Positions 10,036 to 10,115 of a stretch of DNA of 38,037 nt are shown in pieces (positions within the stretch are counted from its first letter, which is position 1; every line of letters starts with the position of its first letter). The DNA is taken from assembly GCA_018666805.1 (NCBI GenBank), contig JABIXB010000019.1:1-38037 (forward strand), written 5' to 3'. The DNA comes from Rhodospirillaceae bacterium (GTDB lineage: Bacteria; Pseudomonadota; Alphaproteobacteria; UBA828). A model generated the notes under the pieces. That model did no database searches, had not been told where the DNA came from, and saw nothing but the letters and a program-made list of their open reading frames with translations. A program made the position numbers and the translations under genes.

Positions 10036-10115
10036 GTTCAAACTGTGAACGCCGGTAGTGAGCCTATCGTTCACGGATTGAACAGCGAATCAAGAAGTTT
10101 GTTCAAATATTGAAC
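10036..10115. promoter_or_regulatory. Three tandem GTTCA-N5-TGAAC inverted repeats (candidate operator array)
   Basis: GTTCAAACTGTGAAC 10036-10050; GTTCACGGATTGAAC 10069-10083; GTTCAAATATTGAAC 10101-10115; centre spacing 33 and 32 bp. Confidence 0.85.

What the first reader, a model, noticed from the sequence alone, without database searches (positions are those of the whole stretch)
10036..10115. Three helically phased GTTCA-N5-TGAAC operators between the EPS regulator and the phosphonate genes
Seen directly: three 15-bp dyads with identical 5-bp arms and unrelated central 5 bp, centres 33 and 32 bp apart, about three helical turns, so all on one DNA face. They lie in the roughly 400-bp divergent region between the MarR/EPS-type regulator (minus) and pepM (plus). 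Inference: a cooperative operator array, plausibly bound by the adjacent regulator, controlling both the rmlBA and pepM-ppd operons.
Basis: partly seen in the sequence, partly recalled or inferred. Interest (0 to 1): 0.8.

Follow-up and report, generated by a model that had tools for sequence, protein, structure and literature searches.

The report
Self-repression operators of a polysaccharide regulator
Three evenly spaced copies of a DNA docking sequence lie between a sugar-coat regulator gene and phosphonate genes; the same sequence sits in front of relatives of that regulator in many bacterial lineages, so it is very probably the regulator's own binding site, woven into the promoter of the regulator's operon and, in most relatives, of an antitermination factor as well.

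Summary
In detail: three exact GTTCA-N5-TGAAC dyads (10036, 10069, 10101), 33 and 32 bp apart, are the only three in the 3.92-Mb genome. All six members of the genus examined carry a three-dyad array. Of 131 distinct upstream regions of the regulator's relatives, 126 hold a dyad with at most one mismatch; in 80 named loci dyads are 424 times denser there than elsewhere. An unbiased search of 395 alphaproteobacterial genomes for two neighbouring dyads hit 40; 39 encode the regulator (56 of the other 355 do). MarR_EPS (TIGR04176) genes of other proteobacteria carry a single copy. So this is very probably the regulator's operator. In the commonest layout a -35 CTTGAC abuts one dyad and the -10 runs into the next, firing towards the regulator: an autorepressor design. 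In 70 of 73 relatives the next gene is an RfaH-like antiterminator, often followed by an ops-like element. In the window the RfaH-like gene has moved to 13095-13610 (-), but an exact ops core (9930-9940, -) lies in the regulator-rmlBA leader. The operator reading is supported; control of pepM is not shown. No binding has been measured.

The parts
10036..10050 (.). dyad 1 GTTCA-AACTG-TGAAC (downstream of the candidate regulator promoter)
   Evidence: exact; present in the genus, not in the wider family alignment
10069..10083 (.). dyad 2 GTTCA-CGGAT-TGAAC (between candidate -35 and -10 of the regulator promoter)
   Evidence: exact; conserved in 8 of 9 other regulator-pepM intergenic regions compared, shifted in the alignment in the ninth, L011
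10101..10115 (.). dyad 3 GTTCA-AATAT-TGAAC (upstream of candidate -35)
   Evidence: exact; conserved, at most one mismatch, in all 9 other regulator-pepM intergenic regions compared
10088..10094 (-). candidate -35 CTTGATT of the regulator-rmlBA promoter
   Evidence: AATCAAG invariant in 5 congeners; CTTGA next to a dyad, towards the regulator, in 77 of 115 relatives
10063..10068 (-). candidate -10 GATAGG, directly after dyad 2 (weak match, 19-bp spacer)
   Evidence: TATCGTTCA block invariant in congeners; equivalent TA position in relatives
9929..9940 (-). ops element GGCGGTAGCGTC in the leader of the regulator-rmlBA operon
   Evidence: 11-bp core exact in the window; core invariant in 10 genomes of the family; 11 of 12 letters of E. 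coli ops12 (PMC5995543)
9221..9841 (-). regulator: winged HTH (HTH_24; TIGR04176-like) with a C-terminal Rossmann-like domain; proposed to bind the dyads
8118..9224 (-). rmlB, start overlaps the regulator's stop by 4 bp; same presumed operon
7180..8196 (-). rmlA, same presumed operon
13095..13610 (-). RfaH-like NusG paralogue (antiterminator); next to the regulator in most relatives, relocated here
   Evidence: TIGR01955 129.7 bits (cut-off 144.5), PF02357 above cut-off; adjacent to the regulator in 70 of 73 relatives
10184..10192 (+). candidate extended -10 (TGTTACGAT) of pepM
   Evidence: conserved in the genus alignment with one substitution in some congeners, not beyond the genus; inference
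10241..11926 (+). pepM (PEP mutase with C-terminal NTP-transferase domain), divergent neighbour
11953..13089 (+). phosphonopyruvate decarboxylase (ppd)

Best explanation
The dyads are the operator of the adjacent winged-HTH regulator (9221-9841, -). Dimers bind GTTCA-N5-TGAAC on one face of the DNA and cover the promoter of their own operon, with one dyad between -35 and -10 and the others flanking it. The regulator thereby represses itself and the co-transcribed rmlBA and downstream polysaccharide genes until a signal, perhaps a nucleotide or nucleotide-sugar sensed by the Rossmann-like C-terminal domain, releases it. In most relatives the same promoter also drives an RfaH-like antiterminator, which would act at an ops-like element in the following operon. 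In this window the RfaH-like gene has moved away, but the ops element in the leader of the regulator-rmlBA operon keeps that second layer. Shown by computation: sites, conservation, co-occurrence with the regulator, interleaving with promoter-like hexamers, RfaH adjacency, ops. Inferred: binding, repression, cooperativity, ligand, any effect on pepM.
For: Only three exact sites in the genome, all here. Six of six members of the genus examined have a three-dyad array. 126 of 131 distinct regulator upstream regions have a dyad with at most one mismatch; at 70% identity clustering 82 of 85 clusters do and 72 have an exact one, against 0.02 expected by chance. 122 sites in 35 kb upstream versus 8 in 977 kb elsewhere; GTTCA with gap 5 is the top arm-and-gap combination in an open scan. 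Unbiased double-dyad search: 40 of 395 genomes, one for the reversed control; 39 of the 40 encode the regulator versus 56 of 355 others, Fisher p = 2e-26; 24 of 30 fetched double-dyad loci have the regulator adjacent. TIGR04176 genes above cut-off carry one exact dyad next to the gene in 16 of 20 fetched non-fused loci. Promoter consensus CTTGAC-dyad-..TA..-dyad in 79 arrays, 77 versus 3 in direction. Spacings peak at 22-24 and 32-33 bp. Homologues without the dyad mostly differ at recognition-helix positions 39-40. RfaH-like gene next in 70 of 73; ops-like element just after it in about half.
Against: No binding or expression data. The window's own promoter hexamers are weak and have a long spacer. 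In genome G061, with no regulator hit, a double dyad lies beside an HxlR-type gene, and three double dyads flank Na+/H+ exchanger genes away from the regulator, so other proteins may use this motif. Five regulator homologues lack the dyad. The recognition-helix correlation is confounded by descent. Activation rather than repression cannot be excluded.
Confidence: 0.82

Rival explanations
1. The array is a two-sided switch: the same bound regulator also controls pepM-ppd, as an upstream activator or by blocking or looping the divergent promoter.
For: The array lies between the two divergent operons, and in 9 related genomes it also lies between the regulator and pepM. In the genus a candidate extended -10 for pepM would put the dyads near -91, -123 and -156, in helical phase (inference).
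Against: No -35 or -10 towards pepM is woven into the dyads; CTTGA near dyads points away from the regulator in only 3 of 115 arrays. Most relatives have the array without pepM. The candidate pepM promoter is not conserved outside the genus.
Confidence: 0.35
2. The dyads act as RNA hairpins in a leader (attenuator or antiterminator target) rather than as DNA sites.
For: Each dyad could form a 5-bp stem, and polysaccharide leaders often carry RNA signals.
Against: No compensated arm changes: 53 one-arm variants at the fifth position, 0 with both arms changed. The commonest layout places the first dyad between -35 and -10, outside the transcript. Spacing is quantised. No Rfam match. The 35 to 18 bias towards variants that keep a G-U pair is mild.
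Confidence: 0.03
3. Another transcription factor, not the neighbouring gene product, binds the dyads.
For: An HxlR-type gene has a double dyad in a genome lacking the regulator, and remote double dyads lie beside Na+/H+ exchangers.
Against: 39 of 40 double-dyad genomes encode the regulator; adjacency persists from close relatives to TIGR04176 members outside the class; in the window genome the sites occur nowhere else.
Confidence: 0.1

Closest known systems
MarR_EPS (NCBIfam TIGR04176), EPS-associated MarR family regulator
   Same: winged HTH; polysaccharide neighbourhood; the same GTTCA-N5-TGAAC dyad next to the gene
   Different: window protein scores 60.5 bits against a cut-off of 88 and has an extra C-terminal Rossmann-like domain; members above cut-off have a single dyad, this family mostly two to four
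RfaH and the ops element
   Same: RfaH-like NusG paralogue in the cluster; exact 11-bp ops core in the operon leader; ops-like elements after the RfaH-like gene in about half of relatives
   Different: RfaH-like protein is below the RfaH cut-off; paired here with a dedicated winged-HTH regulator; many alphaproteobacterial elements read TGCGGTAGCGTG
Rex redox-sensing repressors
   Same: winged HTH plus Rossmann-like domain, similar size; Rex chains among the best though weak fold matches
   Different: no significant fold match (best Rex E 4.4e-3) and no Pfam match of the C-terminal domain; different operator (Rex operator from general knowledge)
Alphaproteobacterial LexA boxes (GTTC-N7-GTTC, from memory)
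   Same: contains GTTC half-sites
   Different: direct repeat there, inverted repeat here; no other exact sites in the genome, unlike an SOS regulon

Membership tests
MarR_EPS TIGR04176 | score above curated cut-off 88 bits | tested here: not met
   60.5 bits over residues 8-87
MarR_EPS TIGR04176 | winged HTH in a polysaccharide locus | tested here: met
   PF13412 30.6 bits (cut-off 21.9); rmlBA and other polysaccharide genes adjacent
MarR_EPS TIGR04176 | same operator next to the gene (proposed here) | tested here: met
   single exact dyad in 16 of 20 fetched non-fused loci above cut-off, one of the other four cut off at a contig end
MarR superfamily (Pfam PF01047) | Pfam gathering score | tested here: not met
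   16.6 bits against 24.6
RfaH TIGR01955 (13095-13610) | score above curated cut-off 144.5 | tested here: not met
   129.7 bits; PF02357 NusG domain passes
RfaH TIGR01955 (13095-13610) | ops element in target leader | tested here: met
   GGCGGTAGCGTC at 9929-9940 (-), 11 of 12 letters of E. coli ops12
RfaH TIGR01955 (13095-13610) | fold-switching C-terminal domain, binding to ops | not testable with these tools
   needs biochemistry
Rex repressors | significant sequence or fold similarity | tested here: inconclusive
   Foldseek best Rex E 4.4e-3; no sequence hit to Rex in Pfam or PDB
Autorepressor operator array | binds own product and represses own promoter | not testable with these tools
   placement over the promoter shown; binding not measured

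The most novel reading that the evidence does not exclude
A previously undescribed, widespread two-tier switch for surface polysaccharides: a winged-HTH regulator with a Rossmann-like, perhaps nucleotide-sugar-sensing domain autoregulates through woven-in GTTCA-N5-TGAAC operators, and the same operon supplies a dedicated RfaH-like antiterminator for ops-marked polysaccharide genes; in this clade the switch has been wired to phosphonate biosynthesis as well.
Probability: 0.5. Interest if true: 0.75.

Novelty: new variant of a known kind. Interest (0 to 1): 0.6.

Why it matters
The MarR_EPS regulators are widespread but I found no paper reporting their target; this gives the family a sharply defined operator that can be tested directly and used to predict targets. 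It also exposes a conserved gene pair, regulator plus RfaH-like antiterminator, that would gate polysaccharide operons at initiation and at elongation, and shows it beside a phosphonate pathway in alphaproteobacteria known mostly from metagenome assemblies.

Tried and rejected
RNA-element reading: Rfam scan empty, no compensatory arm changes. Chance: rejected by genome counts and controls. A sigma70-like site found by the scanner towards pepM (10110-10139) is not conserved in congeners. NeuD (1890-2501) as a homologue of the regulator's C-terminal domain: profile comparison negative. Pfam gave no family for the C-terminal domain even at E 5; PDB sequence matches were only marginal, mostly Rossmann dehydrogenases. 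Literature: no paper with the motif spelled three ways or with TIGR04176; 'EPS-associated transcriptional regulator' occurs in two papers, the one opened giving only a transcript change in Acidithiobacillus caldus; the library lacks most subscription journals. The + strand ORF 13086-13709 first looked like a gene but is antisense to the RfaH-like gene. The first structure model had a poor N-terminus; a deeper alignment raised mean pLDDT from 75.9 to 85.8.

Full report
Observation. The three dyads are present as described: 10036-10050, 10069-10083 and 10101-10115, exact arms, centres 33 and 32 bp apart. They are the only 5+5+5 palindromes in the 399-bp intergenic region and the only exact matches in the 3.92-Mb genome, where the reversed pattern occurs once. 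A triple within 80 bp has an expected count near 1e-9.

Orthologous loci. The regulator was sought in 97 related genomes. Four other members of the genus with a regulator hit have three exact dyads 5' of it; most members of other genera have one to three. The fifth congener, without a regulator hit, has a triple array at the very start of a contig. A named-genome scan gave 80 loci: 69 have an exact dyad within 450 bp upstream (122 sites in 35 kb against 8 in 977 kb, 424-fold), and an open search over all 5-bp arms and gaps 0-15 puts GTTCA with gap 5 first, in 68 of 78 regions. Over everything collected, 126 of 131 distinct upstream regions have a dyad with at most one mismatch; at the level of 70%-identity clusters it is 82 of 85.

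Unbiased test. Two dyads 2-32 bp apart were sought in 395 genomes of the class without using the regulator: 40 genomes match, one for the reversed control. The regulator profile finds 95 of the same 395 genomes, including 39 of the 40. In 24 of the 30 fetched double-dyad loci the regulator gene is adjacent. The exceptions lie by RmlD and polysaccharide genes, a sulfotransferase and ABC transporter, a Rieske-type oxygenase, a gene of no Pfam family, a Na+/H+ exchanger, and, in the one genome without the regulator, an HxlR-type gene; two further remote double dyads outside the 30 also lie by Na+/H+ exchangers.

Family reach. Of TIGR04176 loci above the curated cut-off, 16 of 20 fetched non-fused ones carry one exact dyad next to the gene, in several just after a -10-like hexamer; one of the other four is cut off at a contig end. 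A subgroup in one family of the class (in L199, read out in full, the wHTH is fused to what looks like a sulfate adenylyltransferase/APS kinase) and a few other homologues lack the dyad; they mostly differ at recognition-helix positions 39-40 (R or G, then L, V or I, instead of L, M or K, then T, A or V). This agrees with recognition by that helix but is confounded by descent.

How it works. Oriented towards the regulator, 79 two-dyad arrays give the consensus CTTGAC-[GTTCA N5 TGAAC]-G..TA.-[GTTCA N5 TGAAC]: the -35 abuts the first dyad and the -10 runs into the second. CTTGA next to a dyad points to the regulator in 77 of 115 arrays and away in 3. Distances between dyads cluster at 22-24 and 32-33 bp, about two and three turns. 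This is the design of an autorepressor occluding its own promoter; binding and repression themselves are inferred. In the window's clade CTTGATT lies between dyads 3 and 2, and a weak -10 (GATAGG) follows dyad 2; these blocks are invariant or nearly so in congeners, and dyads 2 and 3 are conserved in the wider family while dyad 1 is a genus-level addition. The regulator's stop overlaps the rmlB start by 4 bp, so the promoter probably serves the rmlBA operon.

Second layer. In 70 of 73 relatives with enough sequence, the gene after the regulator encodes an RfaH-like NusG paralogue. About half then carry an ops-like element (GCGGTAGC in 37 of 72 downstream regions; common flanking words join to a form like CACCCGGAnTGCGGTAGCGTG), mostly within 100 bp. 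In the window's family the RfaH-like gene lies inside the pepM cluster (13095-13610, -) and GGCGGTAGCGTC sits in the leader of the regulator-rmlBA operon (9929-9940, -), its core invariant in ten genomes and matching 11 of 12 letters of the E. coli ops12 oligonucleotide (PMC5995543).

Regulator. The protein has a winged HTH, a long helix and a confident C-terminal Rossmann-like domain (pLDDT above 90 over most of residues 91-200). Best fold matches are weak: UDP-glucose dehydrogenase and Rex repressors. A nucleotide or nucleotide-sugar signal is a guess from this and the neighbourhood.

What stays open. pepM control. The array lies upstream of pepM, but no promoter towards pepM is woven into it; a candidate extended -10 at 10184-10192 is conserved in the genus with small changes only. 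Most relatives have the array without pepM.

Verdict. A real, strongly conserved operator array of a barely studied regulator family, with an unexpected link to an RfaH-like antiterminator. The regulatory principle is known; the family's operator and the pairing were not found described in the open-access library searched.

Noticed in passing
window 13086-13709 (+): This open frame has no family match and is antisense to the RfaH-like gene 13095-13610 (-); it is probably not a gene.
   Followed up: yes
window 20583-20593 (+): GGCGGTAGGTT, an ops-like sequence about 40 bp upstream of the NodU-like gene at 20635.
   Followed up: no
L199 (wHTH hits in about 690-705-aa open frames also at L193-L202): A TIGR04176-like winged HTH is fused to a protein that looks like a bifunctional sulfate adenylyltransferase/APS kinase (my reading of the sequence, no family search), and these loci lack the GTTCA-N5-TGAAC dyad.
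   Followed up: partly
L233 4007, L234 2912, L244 3997: Double GTTCA-N5-TGAAC dyads 30-35 bp apart beside Na+/H+ exchanger genes, away from the regulator, in two genomes that encode the regulator.
   Followed up: partly
L243 3993-4037: A double dyad upstream of an HxlR-type regulator gene in a genome with no hit to the regulator; another protein may use the same operator.
   Followed up: partly
downstream of RfaH-like genes in L131, L123, L148 and others: Alphaproteobacterial form of the ops element, TGCGGTAGCGTG, about 45-95 bp after the RfaH-like gene.
   Followed up: partly
window 874-2501 (-): NeuB-like (TIGR03569, 398.2 bits, just under cut-off) and NeuD-like genes suggest a nonulosonic acid branch in the same gene cluster.
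   Followed up: no
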